A stretch of 64,000 bases of DNA from the NCBI RefSeq assembly GCF_000337515.1, contig NZ_AOIQ01000010.1:1-64000 (forward strand), written 5' to 3'. The stretch comes from Halovivax asiaticus JCM 14624. GTDB taxonomy: Archaea; Halobacteriota; Halobacteria; Halobacteriales; Natrialbaceae. Below the pieces are notes generated by a model. It ran no database searches, had not been told where the DNA came from, and worked only from the letters and a program-made list of their open reading frames with translations. The position numbers were made by a program, and so were the translations under genes. Shown here one piece after another: positions 51,191 to 59,503 of this stretch (within the stretch, counting starts at the first letter, position 1; every line of letters starts with the position of its first letter).

Positions 51191-51556
51191 ATGGGAGAGG
51201 ATATTTCGGTCCTCCACGTCGACGACAACCCGGCGTTCGGGTCTCTCGTCGAGGCGTTCCTCTCGTGAGGAGCGGACGGATTCAAAATCCACAGCGAGCA
51301 CACCGTGTGAACCGGTCTCGAACGGCTCGCCGACGACGAGCCGACCGGCGACTGCGTCGGCAGCGATTACGACATGCCGTCGACCTGGGACTCGGTTCAG
51401 TCACGGGTCGAGACGAAGGAGACGGTCGAACTCGCCTATCGGGTTCGGACGAAGCAGGGGGACGTTCGCCACGTCGGTGAACGCTGACACGGCTGCCTCG
51501 ACGATTCGGGCTCGGTCGCTGCGCTCTATGGCCTGATCGTCGACATCACGGAGTGA
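51191..51556 (+). pseudogene. Decayed receiver-PAS signalling gene
   Basis: One open-like frame interrupted by in-frame TGA at 51266, 51308 and 51485, ending at TGA 51554. It still reads SVLHVDDNPAFGSLVEAFL (receiver start with acidic Asp pair), TGLERLADDEP, DCVGSDYDMP (phospho-Asp site), then after an apparent deletion VELAYRVRTKQGDVRHVGER and GSVAALYGLIVDITE (PAS/PAC end). Each stop could come from CGA or TGG by one transition. Haloarchaea have many such receiver-PAS kinases; this one is dead. Confidence 0.75.
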
Positions 51557-51993
51557 CGTCGCCGACACCCACACGGGCGGCGACAGCTGAATGATCGTTA
51601 GACTGGCTGGACCACTGGTCAGACTTATCAGCAATTCACCGTAAGAATGATTTTTCAGCACTGAAAGCGCGGAATTTCGCGTATTCACGGTGAAACCGAT
51701 GTCTCCTTCAACAGATACTTTTACGCCACGCCGCTGGTCGCCGGGCACATGCAGGTACTCGGCGTACCGGCACGCGACGCGACGAGGCGCGACAGTGGCG
51801 GACAATCGACGATGGCGACGGCCCCCGCTTCGTCGACGGATATCGATTCGGCGCCGACGAGGGGCGATTCGGGGTCGGCGGGACACGACCCGCTGTCGGC
51901 GAGACACGAACCGACGGGCACAGCACGAGCAAGCGAGGGTGCGGCGGCGGTAGCGCCGGCGAGCCGTAGACACAGATTCGGCGCTGCCAACCC
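51557..51993. other. Region between the decayed gene and the BCCT transporter
   Basis: 437 bases. An AT-rich patch (51640-51665) and a TATA-like TACTTTTAC (51715-51723), about 25-34 bases before an ATG at 51749, precede a possible leader ORF (see next entry). The stretch before 51640 holds no gene. Confidence 0.5.
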
Positions 51994-51997
51994 ATGA
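51749..51997 (+). CDS. Possible upstream ORF coupled to the BCCT gene
   Basis: 82 codons, MQVLGVPARDATRRDSGG onward, low-complexity Ala/Arg/Ser with no family. In its favour: a TATA-like box at the right distance and an ATGA overlap with the transporter start. Against it: Arg-rich composition like non-coding frames. It may be only the transcribed leader. Confidence 0.25.
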   Translation: MQVLGVPARDATRRDSGGQSTMATAPASSTDIDSAPTRGDSGSAGHDPLSARHEPTGTARASEGAAAVAPASRRHRFGAANP

Positions 51998-53628
51998 GTG
52001 CGATCGAGTCGTTCAAACGGGAGACCGACCTGCCCGTGTTCGCACTCGCAGTAGCTGCCCTCCTCGGGCTCATCGTGGCCATCGTCGGCTGGCCCGACGC
52101 CGCGGCGGCGAAGCTGGCGACCGCGAACGAACTCATCGTTGCCAACCTGGGATGGCTCTACCTCTGGGTCGTCTTCCTCTCGTTCGTCTTCGTGGTCTAC
52201 ATCATGATCGGCCCGTGGGGGAAGCTCAAACTCGGCGATCCCGACGACGAACCCGAGTTCTCCTTCTGGCAGTACATCGTGTTGACGTTCACCGCCGGGC
52301 TCTCCTCGGGCGGCCTCGAGTTCTGGGGACCGGCGGAACCGCTCGTCCACTACGACACGCGGCCGCCGTACTTCAGCGGCGAGGCGGGGACGTGGGCCGG
52401 GATGGCCGACGCGCTCCAGTACGCCATCTTCCACTACGGCCTGTCGGCGTGGGCGACGTACCTCGTGTTCGCGGTGGCGATCTCGTACTACGTCTACCGG
52501 AAAGGGGCCGACTTCCGACCCGCCGTCGTCCTCGCGCCGTTCGTCGGCGTCGACAACCTGGACGGCTGGCTCGCGAAGGTAGTCGACGCGCTGATGATCA
52601 TCGTGATCGTCAGCGGGATCACCGTCTCCTTCGGCCTCGGGATCAGCCAGTTCGCCTCGGGGCTCGGCTTCAAGTGGGGCGTCGCGCTCGGTGACGGCGG
52701 GAAGATCGGCCTCGCGCTGCTGGTCGGCGTCCTGTTCTTGCTCTCGGTTCTCGCCGGCATCCAGAAGGGCATCCAGCGCTTCGCCGATCTCAACGTCGTC
52801 CTGCTCATCGGGCTGATGGTCGCGACGTTCGCCTTCGGCCCGCTCTCGTCGCTGGTCGACCTCGGGACGCAGGCGGTCACCGGCTACGCGACCGACTTCG
52901 TCGGCATGAGCCTCTTCTTCGCACCCGGCGCCGAGGGGGCGAACTGGTTGAGCAACTGGACGCTGTTCTTCTGGCCCTGGTGGCTCACCTTCGCGCCGAT
53001 GGTCGGCATCTTCATGGCCCGGATCTCGAAGGGGCGGACGCTCCGCCAGCTCGTCGCGGCGGGGCTCTTCGGCTCCTTCGGACTGACCGTCCCCTGGTAC
53101 GTCGGGACGGGCGGGTCGGCGCTGCTGCTCCAGACCTCCGGCGCGGCCGACCTGCTGGGCGTCTACAACTCGGCTGGCCTGGAGGCCGTCGGCTTCGCCC
53201 TCTTCGAGGAACTCCTGCCGTTCGCTGGCCTGTTCTCGGGCGTCCTCCTGCTGCTCGTCGTGAGCTTCCTCATCACCACCATGGACTCCTCAACGCTCAG
53301 CCTCGCCATGATCGTCGCCGACGGCGAGTCGCCCTCCTGGATCACGCGCGTCGTCTGGGGCGTCCTCATGGTGTTGCTGACCATCGCGCTGATGCTCGCC
53401 GGCGGCATGAGCGTCATGCAGTCGTTTACCATTCTCGTCGGGCTGCCGACGGCGATCCTCTGTGCCGTCGCAATGGTCGGGATGGTGCTGGAATTGGAGC
53501 GAGAGGTGCCCGTCTTGGGTGCCGCGCTGGGTGGTGACGATGGCGGGGAACGGACGGATGACACACCGGAATCGACGTCGTCGGTGTCCGTCCAGGGATC
53601 GACTGGGCAACCCGCCGACTCGGACTAG
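51994..53628 (+). CDS. BCCT family transporter (betaine/choline/carnitine)
   Basis: 544 residues with about 12 helices. BCCT marks: the Gly-rich segment LTFTAGLSSGGLEFWGPAEP, and the aromatic motif NWTLFFWPWWLTFAPMVGIF on helix 8 that forms the betaine site. It imports quaternary-ammonium osmolytes with Na+ or H+, expected of a halophile. The C-terminal ~40 residues are acidic and unstructured. Confidence 0.94.
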   Translation: MSAIESFKRETDLPVFALAVAALLGLIVAIVGWPDAAAAKLATANELIVANLGWLYLWVVFLSFVFVVYIMIGPWGKLKLGDPDDEPEFSFWQYIVLTFTAGLSSGGLEFWGPAEPLVHYDTRPPYFSGEAGTWAGMADALQYAIFHYGLSAWATYLVFAVAISYYVYRKGADFRPAVVLAPFVGVDNLDGWLAKVVDALMIIVIVSGITVSFGLGISQFASGLGFKWGVALGDGGKIGLALLVGVLFLLSVLAGIQKGIQRFADLNVVLLIGLMVATFAFGPLSSLVDLGTQAVTGYATDFVGMSLFFAPGAEGANWLSNWTLFFWPWWLTFAPMVGIFMARISKGRTLRQLVAAGLFGSFGLTVPWYVGTGGSALLLQTSGAADLLGVYNSAGLEAVGFALFEELLPFAGLFSGVLLLLVVSFLITTMDSSTLSLAMIVADGESPSWITRVVWGVLMVLLTIALMLAGGMSVMQSFTILVGLPTAILCAVAMVGMVLELEREVPVLGAALGGDDGGERTDDTPESTSSVSVQGSTGQPADSD

Positions 53629-53683
53629 GTGGCTTGGGTTCGGCGCGATTGTGAAAATCAGTTCACGACATCACACGAAACGA

Positions 53684-53700
53684 CCCGGTCACGGGCCGGG
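53684..53700. terminator. Hairpin between convergent genes
   Basis: CCCGG-7-CCGGG lies between the BCCT stop and the acetyltransferase stop; it could terminate either transcript. Confidence 0.35.
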
Positions 53701-53705
53701 ATCAC

Positions 53706-54224
53706 TTACAGATCGCGGCGATATCGCACGGTCGGGTACGTCCTCCCGTCGATCGCCGTTTCGTCCGTCCCGATCCGCTCGAACCCGCGCGCCTCGACGA
53801 ACCCGGCGCCGATCTCGTTCCCGTCGAGCATCTCCAGCGTGAGGGCGTCGATGTCGTCCGGGAGTTCGTTCAGCTCGCGCTCGAGCAGGGCCGTCCCGAC
53901 GCCCTCGCCCCAGCCCTCCGGGTCGACGTAGAGCTCTTTGAGGCCCGCCTCGGTCTCGCCGACGAACGGCTGGGTGTCCTCGCCCCACCGGAGGTGAGCG
54001 TAGCCCAGCACCTCACCCTCGTCGTCCTCGGCGACAAGGAAGCCCGCCGGGTCGTCCAAGAGTTGGTCGAACCGACGGTCCACGTGTTCGTCTACGGGAT
54101 CGCTCGTGACCTGTTTGAGGACGTCCGCCGGGAGAACGTTGGCGTAGGCCTCCTCCCACGCCCGGCCGTTAATCTCGATCGCCGCGCGCACGTCCTCGCG
54201 ACCGCGGAGCTGTCGAACGTTCAT
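53706..54224 (-). CDS. GNAT family N-acetyltransferase
   Basis: 172 residues. NVRQLRGREDVRAAIEINGRAWEEAYANVLP is the N-terminal GNAT start; LYVDPEGWGEGVGTALLERELN is the acetyl-CoA loop and LEMLDGNEIGAGFVEARGFERI the ending. It resembles RimI-like or small-molecule acetyltransferases; substrate unknown. Confidence 0.88.
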   Translation of the reverse strand: MNVRQLRGREDVRAAIEINGRAWEEAYANVLPADVLKQVTSDPVDEHVDRRFDQLLDDPAGFLVAEDDEGEVLGYAHLRWGEDTQPFVGETEAGLKELYVDPEGWGEGVGTALLERELNELPDDIDALTLEMLDGNEIGAGFVEARGFERIGTDETAIDGRTYPTVRYRRDL

Positions 54225-54395
54225 GGCTGGTGGGTTGGAGCGGACGCGACAAAAAACGGAGCGGTCGCGATGGACGATCGAACCGCGAACTCGCGAGTGA
54301 GTTTTGACGCAAGGGGTACGTTCCGATGAAAGAGTATCAGGTGTCGCCGCGTTCGACAGTCGCGAGAAACTCCAGTTCGATGCGTCGCAGCACGT

Positions 54396-54445: not shown

Positions 54446-54571
54446 TCGAGTGGATCGAGATTCGTCGCTTGCTTTCGTCCCTGTGAACTCACCACCCTCT
54501 CGTTCGTAGGGTGTGTACCGAATCGCATTCAGCGGCGTGTACGAACGATTTCCCACTAGAGAAAGGATTAT

Positions 54572-54595
54572 GCTATATTATAATAAAATTATAGC
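54572..54595. promoter_or_regulatory. Palindromic AT-rich promoter of the toxin gene
   Basis: GCTATA and TATAGC arms flank a 12-base A/T centre (TTATAATAAAAT). It contains several TATA-like words and ends 60 bases before the toxin ATG. Candidate promoter/operator. Confidence 0.45.
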
Positions 54596-54655
54596 AAATG
54601 CGCTTCTCGCCCTGCCACAAATCTCGTTGTCCACAGTTGCTGGAGGGACCCGTCG

Positions 54656-55792
54656 ATGGCTAGACGCGCGAGACGTCGGTCACGACACAATTCGACGGAC
54701 GAACGCGAGTCGGCGGAAGCGTCCCGGCCGCGTCGGAGCACACGCTCCGAGTCCTCCGAGCCGAACGCGCCTGGCCCCATGGGAATACCCGTTCTAGGGG
54801 CCGAACAACAGACGCTCGACGAGCCAGTCACGCTCGGGCCGACGGCAAGCGAACAAGCGGGCGATATCCTCTCTGACTTCCTGAATCGACCCGACGAAAT
54901 CCCGGACGATATCAACCGGCAAAACCTGGCGTCGCACAAGCGAAACTGGGACGCCCATTCGGCGACGGGCCCGGCGGGCGATGCCGACGTGCCCGAGAGC
55001 ATCCGCGAGGTCATCTCGTCGTCGGGGCGGTCCCTCGACGCGTCGATCCAGCGTGCTGTGGAGGATCGGATGGGCGATTCGTTCGGCGACGTGCGGATTC
55101 ACACCGGTCCGAACGCTGCGGCGGCCTGTGAGGACATCAACGCGCGGGCATTCACCGTTGGGAACCACATCGCGTTCAATTCGGGTGAGTACGATCCGAA
55201 GAGTCAGGAGGGACAGCACCTGCTCGCGCACGAGTTGGCGCACGTGAGACAGCAGACCGGCGGGGCCCTATCGATGCTCCCGCGGGAGGGCCTGGAGGTG
55301 GATCCGGATCCGGTCCTGGAGCGCGAAGCCCAGGTGGCCGCGGAGCGCGTGATGGACGGCGGCACGCTGGGGATTTCCCGAATGCAAAAGACAGGGATAC
55401 ATATCCAGCGGATGCCTGACCGATCTCAGAGTTACGAAATTGGATCAGGGAATGCAAGTGATTCAGAATCGACTCATACGATCTCATTTTCGGATGGTCA
55501 ACTTCAAAAGAAGTTCAAGCACGCGGATGACTTCGGTGTAACTGAATCTTGGAATTTAGATAGCAAAGAAGCGTTTCGACGAGCGCTCAAGGAACATATA
55601 GCGGACAAAGATACCATCGCAATCGACGGAACGTATAGAGGGGAGACCATACCAGTCACGCATTATTTCAATACTCGTACATCCAATAACGTGATGATTC
55701 ATCGGAGTGGGGATAAACGAGGAGAGTTTTTGTCTGGATGGACTCTCGATCCTGAACAGGCAAACTACGTCACATCGACTGGAGACCTATAA
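54656..55792 (+). CDS. Polymorphic toxin: DUF4157 domain fused to a colicin-D-type tRNase
   Basis: 378 residues. Residues 1-40 are Arg/Ser-rich and disordered. The DUF4157 (eCIS-core) metallopeptidase-like domain spans ~113-235, with HELAH at 192-196 and LEREAQVAAERVM after it. From ~260 the sequence changes to a less GC-biased style and matches colicin D: K286-F-K288-H289, GTYRGE, VTHYFN, NNVM and S360-G-W362 correspond to colicin D K608/K610/H611 and S677/W679. Colicin D cuts the anticodon loop of arginine tRNAs. The SD GGAGGG supports the start, and an immunity gene follows 3 bases later. Confidence 0.88.
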   Translation: MARRARRRSRHNSTDERESAEASRPRRSTRSESSEPNAPGPMGIPVLGAEQQTLDEPVTLGPTASEQAGDILSDFLNRPDEIPDDINRQNLASHKRNWDAHSATGPAGDADVPESIREVISSSGRSLDASIQRAVEDRMGDSFGDVRIHTGPNAAAACEDINARAFTVGNHIAFNSGEYDPKSQEGQHLLAHELAHVRQQTGGALSMLPREGLEVDPDPVLEREAQVAAERVMDGGTLGISRMQKTGIHIQRMPDRSQSYEIGSGNASDSESTHTISFSDGQLQKKFKHADDFGVTESWNLDSKEAFRRALKEHIADKDTIAIDGTYRGETIPVTHYFNTRTSNNVMIHRSGDKRGEFLSGWTLDPEQANYVTSTGDL

Positions 55793-55795
55793 CAT

Positions 55796-56110
55796 ATGAG
55801 TGAGACTGAGCTAACTCGAAAGTATCTCGAATTGATCCGGGAATTCATCGGCGGCGAGATGACTGCGCCCGAATTCGAGAGGCAGTATCTCGACGAGTTC
55901 AAATCAGATCGGGGTAACTTTCCGAGTGGAGATGCGTTCGACCCGTATCATCAACTGTTCGTCGCGGTCGACGCGTATTGTTCGGATCCGGAACTGCGAG
56001 ACGAGTACGACATCGACGAAACAGAGCTTCGAGAAACGGCTGCTGAGACAAAAGCGCAAATGGAACAACGGCTAGAAACGATTACGGGTGAAGCGGAAGA
56101 CATCCATTGA
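55796..56110 (+). CDS. Colicin-D-type immunity protein
   Basis: 104 residues, very acidic. LTRKYLELIREFIGGEMTAPEFERQYLDEF, then LFVAVDAYCSDPELRDEYDIDETELRETA closely fit the colicin-like immunity family (ImmD/Colicin_immun), all-helical proteins that block the tRNase active site by tRNA mimicry. It starts 3 bases after the toxin stop, so it is cotranscribed, as a self-protection gene must be. GC is lower than in neighbouring core genes. Confidence 0.9.
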   Translation: MSETELTRKYLELIREFIGGEMTAPEFERQYLDEFKSDRGNFPSGDAFDPYHQLFVAVDAYCSDPELRDEYDIDETELRETAAETKAQMEQRLETITGEAEDIH

Positions 56111-56530
56111 TCTCACAGAAAGTTGGTAGACATACGACCGTACTTGTACTTCCGTAGGAAAGAGGCTGACTCTGATATCGACCCCGATCCATCAGGGCGT
56201 TCAGGGTAGACTCGTTCTCCCAAACGGGACACAAACCAGATTCGACCTCGAGTGCCCGACGGACAGCTGAACAATCGACCGGGGTCGGCGATACTTTGGT
56301 CAGTGGATAGCCCGTGTCGGTTTCGGAATTCGAATCCAGACCCGTATTCAGTTACGTTTCTTCGTGTTCTGGTTCAATTCTCCGAATTAGAGTTAGATAT
56401 AAGTCACTGTACAACGCACTGACTGGTGGAAGCGATCGTCTCCAGAAGGCCAGGGGACTGCCAGTTGAATGTCCCGGGTGGTGGAGCACCCGAGACGATT
56501 GCTTCCACACCTATGGAGGGGTATGCAAGC
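56111..56530. other. Region between immunity and zinc-ribbon genes
   Basis: 420 bases without a convincing gene. On the minus strand ~56130-56260 a frame reads RALEVESGLCPVWENE and could be a relic, but no family was recognised. The right part holds a three-way-junction element (separate entry). Confidence 0.5.
56427..56507 (+). ncRNA. Three-way-junction structured element
   Basis: A 16-base outer stem (56427-56442 with 56492-56507, all paired allowing one G-U) encloses an 11-base strand, hairpin GGGAC-12-GTCCC (56454-56475) and hairpin GGGTG-6-CACCC (56476-56491). The second hairpin abuts both its neighbours with no linker. It ends 24 bases before the zinc-ribbon ATG. Could be a leader RNA, a small RNA or a cruciform DNA site. 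Confidence 0.45.
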
Positions 56531-56923
56531 ATGACTGGATACAATTCAGACCGACATAAGCGTCCCGGGAGCGAAGCACGCGAAAACGACCGCCAGATGG
56601 CGACAGACGGCGGAATTAGGGATGAGTCTGTAGAGACTGGTCAGGAATCAGAGGCAGACGACTCGATGCCCGACACGGACGATTCTGATGACGACTGTGA
56701 TCCCGATCCACCAGCGACTGGTGGGGAGGCAGGCAGGGGCGAAGGCGAAGAAGAGGAAGTGCCGGCGTGGAAGGAGTACGGTTATCCGCGAGAGCCCAAA
56801 TGGGCGCCCGACTGTCCGAGCTGTGGCGGACCGGTACTCAATGTTACCATCGCCGGGCCAGGGGTGAGTCAGGTCTCGCCGTGTGGGTGTAATGTCGCGC
56901 CGTCGGACGTGGAAATTCTCTGA
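56531..56923 (+). CDS. Zinc-ribbon protein with acidic disordered N-terminus
   Basis: 130 residues from the ATG at 56531, preceded by GGAGGGG (56516-56522). The first ~80 are Asp/Glu/Ser-rich; the end has WAPDCPSCGGPVLNVTIAG and SPCGCNVAPS, a two-knuckle zinc ribbon. The function is unknown; it might bind nucleic acid. Located between the toxin pair and the nuclease pair. Confidence 0.68.
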   Translation: MTGYNSDRHKRPGSEARENDRQMATDGGIRDESVETGQESEADDSMPDTDDSDDDCDPDPPATGGEAGRGEGEEEEVPAWKEYGYPREPKWAPDCPSCGGPVLNVTIAGPGVSQVSPCGCNVAPSDVEIL

Positions 56924-56997
56924 GCGAAGGAACGGTTCGTGGATGCTGGAAGTCGATTTTTGGAAGTGATTCTCCGTTCGAGGACAGCTAAGTATTC

Positions 56998-57136
56998 AAA
57001 AGCCCCTGACGCTCTCGGCGGCTGCGACTCGCTGCGGTCCTCGCTCACTTCGTTCGCTGTGGTCCTTGCGTCGTCTCGCTCGCCGAGACCGCCAGCCCCT
57101 TTTATTCCCACCCGGGTGGTTGACCGGGCGCTGTAG
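56998..57136 (+). repeat. Structured repeat, copy A
   Basis: Starts AAAAGCCCCTG and ends GCGCTGTAG. The inner part has inverted arms TCTCGGCG (57013-57020)/CGCCGAGA (57081-57088), a direct repeat TCGCTGyGGTCCT, and a perfect palindrome CCACCCGGGTGG (57108-57119) preceded by CAGCCCCTTTTATT. The same landmarks in the opposite direction occur at 59316-59503, on the other side of two nuclease genes. Confidence 0.7.
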
Positions 57137-57164
57137 CGGGCGAACGGACAGGAAATCACATACC

Positions 57165-58412
57165 TCAAACCAGTTCTCGAAGCGCCCAGACGTCGTCCGT
57201 CGGATCCAGTTTGTTCGGCTCCTTCCCACGCTCCGTCACGATCCCGGCGTGGTAGAGCATCGCCTTCAGTTGAAACACCGTCGGCGAGTGATAGACGTTC
57301 CCGTCCGCTAACTCGGACGTCTGCAGTTCCCCATCCTCATCGAGCACCCGACTTCGCACGTCCTCGTCGCCTTTGATGAACAGTTCCACCGCGAAGGTCG
57401 AGTGCGTCCCGTGGAGGTACGTGACCAATTCGACCAGCGACGGGCAGGAGTTGCCGATCTCGTGTAATTCCTGCAGTATCGAGACCAGGAGCGTCGTGGC
57501 TTTGTATTCGAAGACAATCCGCCGAGCGAGCTGGCCCCACAGCGGTTCGTCGTCGATGAAGCGTTTCCGGCTGCGTTGCCAGTTTTCGAACTCCCGAAGG
57601 GCAGCCTCAACGGTCTCGTAGTTTGACTTCGCGAAGCGGACGACCTCCTGGCCCAGCGTGGTGAGTTCAATATGTCCGTCTCGCTCGTGAACCAGTCCGA
57701 GAAACTCGGCCCCCTGTCGCGACCCGTCGACCTCGCCGACGACGTGTTTCGCTTGCAGGGTTGCCGTGTCGCCGTCGGCGTAGCACGCCAGCGCGTACCC
57801 GAGGTAGTTCTTCGGGTGGTTCAGCGAGAAGGACTTGTCGGCCACGCCCTGCGCACTCGCCTGGAAGCGGATCGCCGTGGCGTCCGAAGTGGTCCGGTTG
57901 CCCACGACTCTGGGGCGCTCGATGGGCGTCACGGTTCCCTGCTCGGACACACCCAGCACGCCCACGTTCAACTCGCGGGCTAGCGTCCGGTCGGTCTTCG
58001 TAATCGTCTTCGCCGGGGCCGCGAGGTAGGCCACGTTGGCCTCCGCGAGCCGATCGTAGGCCTGCGTGATTCCCTTCTCGGTCGGCACGCCATCTTCCTT
58101 GCTGTCATAGCCCTTCGCCTCGATCACGATCAGCGGCGGCTCGTCGCCAAATCGCTCCACCGCCAGAAACTCGTTGTCCAGGTTTCGGACACCGACGAGG
58201 TCGGGATAGCCACCGCCGAGGCGAACGTGGTTGAACGGCGAGAGCCGATCGCGGATACGCTGATCGAGCGGCTGGCCGGACAGCCACTCGTTCTTGGCGA
58301 ACTGCGTGTCAACGACCGCGTAGGTGTCCGAGGCCCCGTCCTCGGGAAAGAGCGCCTCCTTCGTCCGCGCGAGGACGTGGGGCTCGGAAAGTGAGACTGC
58401 CGAGCTGCTCAT
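57165..58412 (-). CDS. PD-(D/E)XK nuclease-like protein
   Basis: 415 residues. The catalytic core is D71 (GGGYPDLVGV), E98 and K100 (IVIEAKGY), with Q117 and Y119 in the following helix (GITQAYDRLAEANVAYLA), the restriction-endonuclease-like pattern. The rest is an alpha-rich C-terminal region (residues ~190-415) possibly with winged-helix domains (LVHERDGHIELTTLGQEVV). Divergent from a GIY-YIG-like gene. Nucleic-acid cleavage, perhaps in defence, is likely; the target is unknown. Confidence 0.78.
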   Translation of the reverse strand: MSSSAVSLSEPHVLARTKEALFPEDGASDTYAVVDTQFAKNEWLSGQPLDQRIRDRLSPFNHVRLGGGYPDLVGVRNLDNEFLAVERFGDEPPLIVIEAKGYDSKEDGVPTEKGITQAYDRLAEANVAYLAAPAKTITKTDRTLARELNVGVLGVSEQGTVTPIERPRVVGNRTTSDATAIRFQASAQGVADKSFSLNHPKNYLGYALACYADGDTATLQAKHVVGEVDGSRQGAEFLGLVHERDGHIELTTLGQEVVRFAKSNYETVEAALREFENWQRSRKRFIDDEPLWGQLARRIVFEYKATTLLVSILQELHEIGNSCPSLVELVTYLHGTHSTFAVELFIKGDEDVRSRVLDEDGELQTSELADGNVYHSPTVFQLKAMLYHAGIVTERGKEPNKLDPTDDVWALRELV

Positions 58413-58579
58413 GCCCGAAAATCGAAGGCTGACGGCAAGAACGTTCGCACTCGATACACGATGGATCGGTCACAAACAGGACTTCGAAATCACAGACCCG
58501 CCATAAATTACCCTAGTTTTCTGCCCCTAATCGGCCAGATGGCTTTAGATAATAGAAGGGATTGGTCCGCTGACCGAAG

Positions 58580-59293
58580 ATGGGACGACGCGACGATCTC
58601 GATCGACTGTACGACCTGCTGGATCGACTCGACGACCGCGTCGGCGGCGCGAAGACGCTCGACGACTGCACGGGCTACATGGACTGGCCGGAGCGCGGCC
58701 TCTACGTGTTCTTCGCCGACGGCGAGACCCGGGACGGGACCGACCAGCCGCGGGTCACGCGCGTCGGGACGCACGCAGTATCCTCAGGAAGTGGCACGTC
58801 ACTCTGGAATCGGCTCAGGGCGCACCGCGGCGCGAACAGCGGTACCTACGGCGGTGGCGGTAACCACCGTGGCTCCGTCTTCCGAAAACGCGTCGGCGAA
58901 GCACTCCTCGCCAGAGACGATCTCGAAGCCGATTATCCCGAGTGGGGCGTCGGATCGAGCGCGGACAAAGACGTTCGGCTCGACGAGCACGATCACGAGG
59001 TCCGCGTCAGCGAGTGCATTCGCGACCTTCCGTTCCTCTGGATCGACGTCGACGACGAACCGGGACCGGACAGCGAACGCGCGTACCTCGAATCGAACCT
59101 GATCGCGCTCGTCAGCAACTACGAGACCGAACCGATCGACCCGAGAGCAGGTGATTGGCTCGGCCGCCACTGCCCCTCCGAACCAATTCGCAGTTCGGGC
59201 CTCTGGAACGTCAACCACGTCGACGAAGCGTACGACTCGAACTTCCTGACCCTGCTCGAAACCCGAATCGACGAGACGGAACCGGTCGACTAA
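58580..59293 (+). CDS. GIY-YIG-like nuclease domain protein
   Basis: 237 residues. GLYVFFADGET, then RVTRVGTHAV and SLWNRLRAHRG give a degenerate GIY-YIG signature (GLY...RVG plus the helix Arg). A Gly/His-rich loop follows (GNHRGSVFRKRVGEALL). The C-terminal half has SERAYLESNLIALVSN with a Glu that could be the metal ligand, then DWLGRHCPSEPIRSSGLWN. Probably a nuclease working with the divergent PD-(D/E)XK protein; not a recognised named system. Confidence 0.65.
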   Translation: MGRRDDLDRLYDLLDRLDDRVGGAKTLDDCTGYMDWPERGLYVFFADGETRDGTDQPRVTRVGTHAVSSGSGTSLWNRLRAHRGANSGTYGGGGNHRGSVFRKRVGEALLARDDLEADYPEWGVGSSADKDVRLDEHDHEVRVSECIRDLPFLWIDVDDEPGPDSERAYLESNLIALVSNYETEPIDPRAGDWLGRHCPSEPIRSSGLWNVNHVDEAYDSNFLTLLETRIDETEPVD

Positions 59294-59315
59294 CTGGAAC
59301 CGAACGATCTACGTT

Positions 59316-59503
59316 CTACAGCACTTCGACTAGCCGCCCGAGCGGGAATGAAAAGGCTGGCATGCGTGGCGGCGGAAGCCGCCACGGTATAGGCGGTCGG
59401 TTCCACCGACCACCCTCTCGGCCCCTCCCGGGCGACGTAAGCACCGCAGGCGATACCGAGGAGCGCAGCGAAACCTGGAGAGTCGAGACCGGCAGGGGCT
59501 TTC
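59316..59503 (-). repeat. Structured repeat, copy B (opposite orientation)
   Basis: On the minus strand it starts GAAAGCCCCTG, contains TTCGCTGCGCTCCTCG and ends CAGCCTTTTCATTCCC...GTGCTGTAG, the landmarks of copy A. It is ~50 bases longer and adds two perfect hairpins: GTGGCGGC-GGAA-GCCGCCAC (59366-59385) with a GNRA loop, and GGTCGG-5-CCGACC (59395-59411). It lies 22 bases after the GIY-YIG-like stop. Confidence 0.7.

What the first reader, a model, noticed from the sequence alone, without database searches (positions are those of the whole stretch)
54656..56110. Archaeal DUF4157-colicin D toxin with its immunity gene
The protein joins a DUF4157 domain (HELAH zinc motif) to a C-terminal domain with the colicin D catalytic pattern K-F-K-H and S-G-W, and the next gene matches colicin-D immunity proteins. 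A tRNase toxin carried by an eCIS-core-type domain is a rare arrangement in haloarchaea and implies inter-archaeal killing. No sheath, tube or baseplate gene is in the window, so delivery must come from elsewhere or be independent.
Basis: partly seen in the sequence, partly recalled or inferred. Interest (0 to 1): 0.88.

Follow-up and report, generated by a model that had tools for sequence, protein, structure and literature searches.

The report
Haloarchaeal colicin-D effector and immunity pair
A salt-loving archaeon carries a predicted tRNA-cutting toxin, its antidote gene, and, elsewhere in its genome, the parts of a spring-loaded injection machine that could deliver it; a related species has lost this toxin from the same spot but kept the antidote.

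Summary
ORF 54656-55792 joins an eCIS_core/DUF4157 domain (E=8e-32, HELAH) to a colicin D tRNase domain (E=7e-18). All five residues reported essential in colicin D are conserved. The next ORF (55796-56110) is a Colicin_immun protein (E=1.7e-13). The delivery question is largely answered: the same genome encodes the expected parts of a haloarchaeal contractile injection system (CIS), dispersed over three loci (C17, C15, C9). In 394 Halobacteria genomes DUF4157 and sheath co-occur (45 both, 10 discordant). All four genomes with DUF4157-colicin D have a sheath; the five with colicin D otherwise have none. The colicin D-immunity block is a swapped-in, AT-rich cassette: flanks and carrier are conserved in two congeners, but the toxin end is replaced. 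One congener keeps the orphan immunity gene (92% identical); this genome in turn keeps an orphan immunity gene 92% identical to that of the congener's own colicin-D pair. Best reading: one of at least four polymorphic effectors of a T6SS-like haloarchaeal CIS. New member of a known kind: haloarchaeal DUF4157 toxin-immunity pairs were tested in 2024, and colicin D was listed with this carrier in 2012. Toxicity, tRNA target and delivery are inferred.

The parts
54656..55792 (+). Toxin gene: 378-aa DUF4157 - colicin D effector
54656..55375 (+). Carrier part (residues 1-240): basic, low-complexity N-terminus plus DUF4157; conserved with the congeners' genes at the same locus (76-78% DNA identity), where homology ends at about 55375
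55034..55264 (+). eCIS_core / DUF4157 domain (residues 127-203)
   Evidence: E 8.2e-32
55229..55243 (+). HELAH (HExxH) zinc motif, residues 192-196
55499..55768 (+). Colicin D tRNase domain (residues 282-371); K-K-x-K-H-x-x-D and S-G-W conserved
55376..56110 (+). Exchangeable toxin-immunity cassette: toxin C-terminal part GC 45%, GC3 0.43; immunity GC 52%, GC3 0.56; carrier GC 66%, GC3 0.78; absent or replaced in congeners
55796..56110 (+). Immunity gene, Colicin_immun family, 104 aa, acidic, helical in the predicted model
56111..56384 (.). Stretch between the cassette and the right flank shared with G101 (flank resumes at 56385). The congener G043 has a recognisable DUF4157-carrier remnant here (EIDPNPQLDGEAGETARRVMEGGELG); in the window only a short IDPDP trace is left
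54557..54600 (+). AT-rich, TATA-like block upstream of the toxin gene (possible promoter; inference, no archaeal promoter model was available)

Best explanation
The pair is a polymorphic effector-immunity module of a haloarchaeal contractile injection system, probably of the T6SS-like, membrane-anchored type. The DUF4157 carrier marks the protein as CIS cargo. On firing, the machine puts it into a touching haloarchaeal cell, where the colicin D domain cuts tRNA (tRNA-Arg in the E. coli enzyme) and stops translation. The 104-aa protein made from the next gene binds the colicin D domain and protects the producer and its sisters. The colicin D-immunity block is a cassette exchanged by recombination at the end of the carrier, and immunity genes can outlast toxins when a new cassette arrives. 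Shown here: domains, catalytic residues, gene pair, CIS gene set in the genome, co-occurrence, cassette exchange. Inferred: toxicity, tRNA specificity, loading, delivery and target.
For: Domains and catalytic residues. CIS genes in the same genome: C17 sheath, two gp19 tubes, DUF6760; C15 CIS_tube/LysM, GPD hub, spike OB, PAAR, gp25, Baseplate_J; C9 AAA ATPase and Pvc16/DUF4255 cap. Apart from one small upstream protein matched over 34 residues only, the Haloferax larsenii plasmid CIS proteins tested match over most of their length, including the plasmid's membrane protein near its CIS. DUF4157 and sheath co-occur in 45 of 394 genomes with 10 discordant, odds ratio about 640. All four DUF4157-ColD genomes have a sheath, none of the five with ColD otherwise. 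H. borinquense secretes DUF4157 proteins in a sheath-dependent way, including ones encoded away from the cluster, and four toxins were neutralised by the next gene (PMC11566945). Cassette exchange and retained orphan immunity.
Against: No activity, secretion or killing data exist for this protein. The gene lies far from the CIS genes, and the machine itself is split over three loci, so its assembly is not proven. The toxin-immunity interface was not modelled. The co-occurrence test ignores shared ancestry. The immunity profile reaches E. coli ImmD only weakly (E 0.1; Foldseek E 1.3).
Confidence: 0.82

Rival explanations
1. A diffusible, bacteriocin-like archaeocin that reaches its targets without a contractile machine.
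For: The colicin D domain is typical of bacteriocins, and the gene lies outside any CIS cluster.
Against: No colicin-like receptor or translocation domain was found beside DUF4157 and ColD. The N-terminus is basic, not an apparent Sec/Tat signal (by inspection). DUF4157 tracks the sheath across genomes, and DUF4157 proteins of H. borinquense encoded away from its cluster need the sheath for full secretion (PMC11566945).
Confidence: 0.07
2. An intracellular toxin-antitoxin or abortive-infection pair that acts on its own cell.
For: Two-gene toxin and neutraliser operon layout; colicin D acts inside cells on tRNA (PMC9990079).
Against: The fused DUF4157 carrier is a secretion-linked domain (PMC8213781). 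The same carrier at this locus bears unrelated toxins in congeners, which fits export cargo better than a fixed internal pair.
Confidence: 0.05
3. A decaying relic: the pair, or the split CIS, is no longer functional.
For: The CIS is broken into three loci; a DUF4157 fragment sits on C2; the congener G043 toxin has substitutions at the D614, S677 and G678 positions.
Against: The window toxin and immunity ORFs are intact with all five essential residues. Sheath, tube and baseplate genes are full length, and sheath and baseplate are also separated in the closed congener genomes G101 and G043. Immunity divergence from the G043 orphan shows fewer amino-acid changes than neutral expectation (dN/dS 0.24, P 0.006).
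Confidence: 0.06

Closest known systems
Halogeometricum borinquense T6SS/CIS effector-immunity pairs with DUF4157 (PMC11566945)
   Same: N-terminal DUF4157, variable C-terminal toxin, downstream immunity gene, CIS in the same genome, some effector genes far from the cluster
   Different: The paper's main text does not mention colicin (0 occurrences); the CIS here is dispersed over three loci; nothing has been tested here
PVC-metallopeptidase polymorphic toxins; Tox-Colicin D with ImmD (Zhang et al. 2012, PMC3482391)
   Same: Tox-Colicin D is tabulated with PVC-metallopeptidase association, ImmD immunity and occurrence in euryarchaeota; haloarchaeal PVC toxins with variable C-termini are described
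   Different: The table does not say whether the fused form was seen in a haloarchaeon; the passages read give no locus-level exchange history
E. coli colicin D and ImmD (PDB 1v74, 1tfo)
   Same: Catalytic domain 49% identical over the compared residues; all essential residues conserved; predicted fold matches
   Different: Carrier is DUF4157 instead of colicin receptor-binding and translocation domains; immunity protein is only remotely similar to ImmD
Haloarchaeal colicin D toxins on non-DUF4157 repeat proteins (genomes G016, G083, G084, G169)
   Same: Colicin D plus Colicin_immun gene pair
   Different: Different carrier; those genomes show no sheath gene

Membership tests
Colicin_D tRNase toxin (PF11429) | HMM match over the curated cut-off | tested here: met
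   65.2 bits against cut-off 25
Colicin_D tRNase toxin (PF11429) | Essential residues K607, K608, H611, D614, S677 | tested here: met
Colicin_D tRNase toxin (PF11429) | Fold | tested here: met
   best PDB matches are colicin D, TM 0.70, from a modest model
Colicin_D tRNase toxin (PF11429) | Cleavage of tRNA-Arg between positions 38 and 39 | not testable with these tools
   known for E. coli colicin D (PMC9990079)
Colicin_immun (PF09204) / ImmD | HMM match and position next to the toxin | tested here: met
   51.4 bits against cut-off 22, 3 nt downstream
Colicin_immun (PF09204) / ImmD | Structural similarity to ImmD | tested here: inconclusive
   profile E 0.1; Foldseek rank 7, E 1.3, TM 0.38
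Colicin_immun (PF09204) / ImmD | Neutralises the toxin | not testable with these tools
   needs co-expression or binding assay
CIS (eCIS/T6SS-like) effector | eCIS_core/DUF4157 domain | tested here: met
   E 8.2e-32
CIS (eCIS/T6SS-like) effector | CIS machine encoded in the same genome | tested here: met
   C17, C15, C9 gene sets
CIS (eCIS/T6SS-like) effector | Gene within or next to the CIS cluster (usual, not required) | tested here: not met
   orphan on contig C10; effectors encoded away from the cluster are known to be secreted in H. borinquense
CIS (eCIS/T6SS-like) effector | Sheath-dependent secretion | not testable with these tools
   needs secretomes of wild type and sheath mutant
Haloarchaeal T6SS (membrane-anchored clade) | CIS-linked membrane protein with six predicted TM helices and a cytoplasmic domain of about 150 residues | tested here: inconclusive
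   393-aa C15 protein, about six hydrophobic segments, 38% identical to a protein near the H. larsenii CIS; Hbor_38620 itself was not compared
Polymorphic toxin system | Constant N-terminal carrier with interchangeable C-terminal toxin and partner gene | tested here: met
   three alleles at one locus in G000, G043 and G101

The most novel reading that the evidence does not exclude
Two congeneric haloarchaea carry a genomic record of a two-way arms race. At two loci, one species holds the colicin-D toxin-immunity pair, while the other has a different effector there and keeps only the matching orphan immunity gene (92% protein identity each way). The orphan immunity genes would then give cross-species protection against the other lineage's CIS-delivered tRNase.
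Probability: 0.4. Interest if true: 0.65.

Novelty: new member of a known kind. Interest (0 to 1): 0.52.

Why it matters
Contact-dependent killing by an archaeal contractile machine was reported in 2024 (PMC11566945), and that paper found no obvious toxin candidates by bioinformatics in the central region of its cluster. This pair offers an effector with a predictable enzymatic activity (tRNA cleavage), known essential residues and a defined immunity gene, so archaeal CIS killing can be tested biochemically. The orphan immunity genes in congeners make resistance evolution and cross-protection in archaea directly testable, and the machine dispersed over three loci asks how a CIS is regulated and assembled without a single cluster.

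Tried and rejected
Single-sequence search of the immunity protein against the PDB gave only chance matches. NCBIfam added nothing useful. No relatives of toxin domain or immunity in viral contigs; in phages only one weak match, in a Pseudomonas phage record; the immunity protein has no plasmid match. Genome contigs gave only RHS-carried colicin D domains of Bacillota. My simple gene caller first missed the immunity ORFs beside the G043 and G212 toxins; the PF09204 search corrected this, so an early idea that altered toxins lack immunity genes was dropped. A first translation of the window domain in the wrong frame was redone. The complex was not predicted: the tool folds single proteins only. 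The Foldseek hit of the immunity model to ImmD is too weak to count. The Makarova 2019 paper on archaeal polymorphic toxins is not in the library.

Full report
What is there. ORF 54656-55792 (+) encodes 378 residues; ORF 55796-56110 (+) follows after 3 nt. Pfam places eCIS_core (DUF4157) at residues 127-203 (E 8.2e-32) and Colicin_D at 282-371 (E 7.1e-18), and calls the second protein Colicin_immun (E 1.7e-13); all exceed their curated cut-offs. By sequence the best solved relatives of the C-terminal domain are E. coli colicin D structures (1v74_A, E 7.1e-18). The five residues that PMC3482391 lists as essential in colicin D (K607, K608, H611, D614, S677) are K, K, H, D and S in the window protein; the numbering was checked by the H611-S677 distance of 66 residues in the colicin D sequence and by the alignment. 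A model built from three sequences has modest confidence (pLDDT 63), but its only significant PDB matches are the five colicin D chains (TM up to 0.70). The immunity model is helical (pLDDT 82); its similarity to ImmD is suggestive only (profile E 0.1).

Delivery. A sheath gene is on contig C17, with two gp19-type tube proteins and a DUF6760 protein next to it. Spike, hub, LysM adaptor, PAAR, gp25 and Baseplate_J genes are together on C15. The CIS-type AAA ATPase and the Pvc16/DUF4255 protein are on C9 beside another DUF4157 effector. Using the annotated CIS of the Haloferax larsenii plasmid NZ_CP078064.1 as a checklist, the components tested have counterparts in this genome; the one exception is a small upstream hypothetical protein matched over 34 residues only. 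A 393-aa protein upstream of the C15 block has about six hydrophobic segments and resembles (38%) a protein on the same H. larsenii plasmid, near its CIS. It may be the membrane anchor that PMC11566945 links to the T6SS mode; this was not tested against Hbor_38620. The separation of sheath and baseplate is not an assembly artefact: in the closed congener genomes G101 and G043 they lie hundreds of kilobases apart, while in G209 they are about 18 kb apart.

Carrier and machine go together. Across 394 Halobacteria genomes, strong DUF4157 hits occur in 51 and a sheath in 49, with 45 having both (from; shared ancestry is not corrected for). Colicin D occurs in 9 genomes. In the four where it is fused to a DUF4157 protein, or to part of one (G000, G104, G043, G212), a sheath is present. 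In the five where it is on another carrier or is a fragment (G016, G083, G084, G169, G320) there is none. PMC11566945 shows that DUF4157 proteins of H. borinquense, including ones encoded away from the CIS cluster, are secreted in a sheath-dependent manner, and that four toxins were neutralised by the downstream gene. So an orphan location is no obstacle to delivery.

The cassette. The closed congener G101 has the same flanks (86-89% identical; window 51385-54285 and 56385-59361) and the same carrier (77.5%, ending at window 55374), but then an unrelated C-terminus and a 301-aa partner. In congener G043 the same locus holds another DUF4157 protein with its own partner gene. After it come a DUF4157 fragment, the last codons of the colicin D gene, and an intact colicin-type immunity gene 92% identical to the window's. 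Base composition changes at the same point: carrier GC 66% and GC3 0.78, toxin C-terminus GC 45% and GC3 0.43 (below all 237 coding segments of that size in the window), immunity GC 52%. Synonymous divergence of the immunity gene from the G043 orphan (dS 0.15) is lower than that of the neighbouring GNAT gene (0.44; 9/66 against 42/126 sites, P 0.003), which suggests exchange after the species split, though codon composition differs.

Mirror image. This genome carries on contig C8 an orphan Colicin_immun gene 92% identical to the immunity gene of G043's own colicin D pair, in a locus with matching stretches of carrier and neighbouring genes but a different effector. Thus each species has one colicin D pair and an orphan immunity gene against the other's type. 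The G043 colicin D domain has substitutions at the D614, S677 and G678 positions, so it may be weak or dead. The orphan immunity of G043 shows fewer amino-acid changes than neutral expectation (dN/dS 0.24, P 0.006); the C8 orphan does not significantly (0.57, P 0.27). Retention under selection by neighbours' attacks is therefore plausible but not shown; simple stacking of cassettes would leave the same pattern.

Mechanism. Most likely, the DUF4157 part makes the protein cargo of the CIS, the machine injects it into a touching haloarchaeon, the colicin D domain cuts tRNA and stops translation, and the 104-aa protein protects the producer. Colicin D of E. coli cuts tRNA-Arg between positions 38 and 39 (PMC9990079); whether the archaeal enzyme keeps this specificity is unknown. 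The role of DUF4157 (loading, processing or release) is also unknown (PMC8213781, PMC11297309).

Novelty. The ingredients are known: haloarchaeal DUF4157 effectors with immunity genes (PMC11566945), Tox-Colicin D tabulated with PVC-metallopeptidase and euryarchaeota (PMC3482391; the table does not say that the fused form was in a haloarchaeon), and colicin D in archaeal polymorphic toxin loci (PMC6393860). New here, as far as these searches go, are this member, its cassette history across three congeners, the mutual orphan immunity genes, and a CIS dispersed over three loci. It is a new member of a known kind, of moderate interest.

Noticed in passing
G000 contigs C17:126063-131254, C15:15569-31774, C9:198091-201740 (L026, L042-L043, L011): CIS gene set dispersed over three loci in this genome; sheath and baseplate are also far apart in closed congeners G101 and G043 but together in G209, G104 and G212.
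   Followed up: partly
L008:11750-15051 (G000:C2:76749-80053): A 935-aa effector with two DUF4157 domains, LysM and a C-terminal GH-E (HNH/EndoVII) nuclease, followed by an ankyrin-repeat partner; a third DUF4157 fragment lies downstream, and an MrcB_N/AAA protein (McrB-like) lies upstream.
   Followed up: partly
L011:8805-9647, L012:10978-11895, L103:8611-9513, L089:10561-11595, L111:4353-5402: A protein family of 281-350 aa (no Pfam match in the three members scanned) sits directly after five DUF4157 effectors; among those compared, the C-termini show no similarity beyond the first 16-35 residues past the carrier. It may be a shared adaptor or chaperone rather than a specific immunity protein.
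   Followed up: partly
L088:6489-9962 (G000:C8): A 323-aa protein with the basic, PDAPIPDSP-rich N-terminus of DUF4157 effectors but no DUF4157 match, followed by an array of small genes, an orphan colicin-type immunity gene and a SUKH-family gene.
   Followed up: partly
L091:6113-7543 (G076): An orphan colicin-type immunity gene next to a SUKH-family gene 66% identical to the one on C8, in a genome without a sheath hit: immunity genes without the weapon.
   Followed up: partly
L032-L035 (G016, G084, G083, G169): Colicin D plus immunity on a different carrier with repeated DAATQRRF-type modules, in genomes without a sheath; some of these loci hold several such proteins in a row.
   Followed up: no
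L029:4562-7517 (G212): A colicin D module with a partial DUF4157 carrier in two frames and its immunity gene, directly behind another complete DUF4157 effector and partner: probably a displaced cassette.
   Followed up: no
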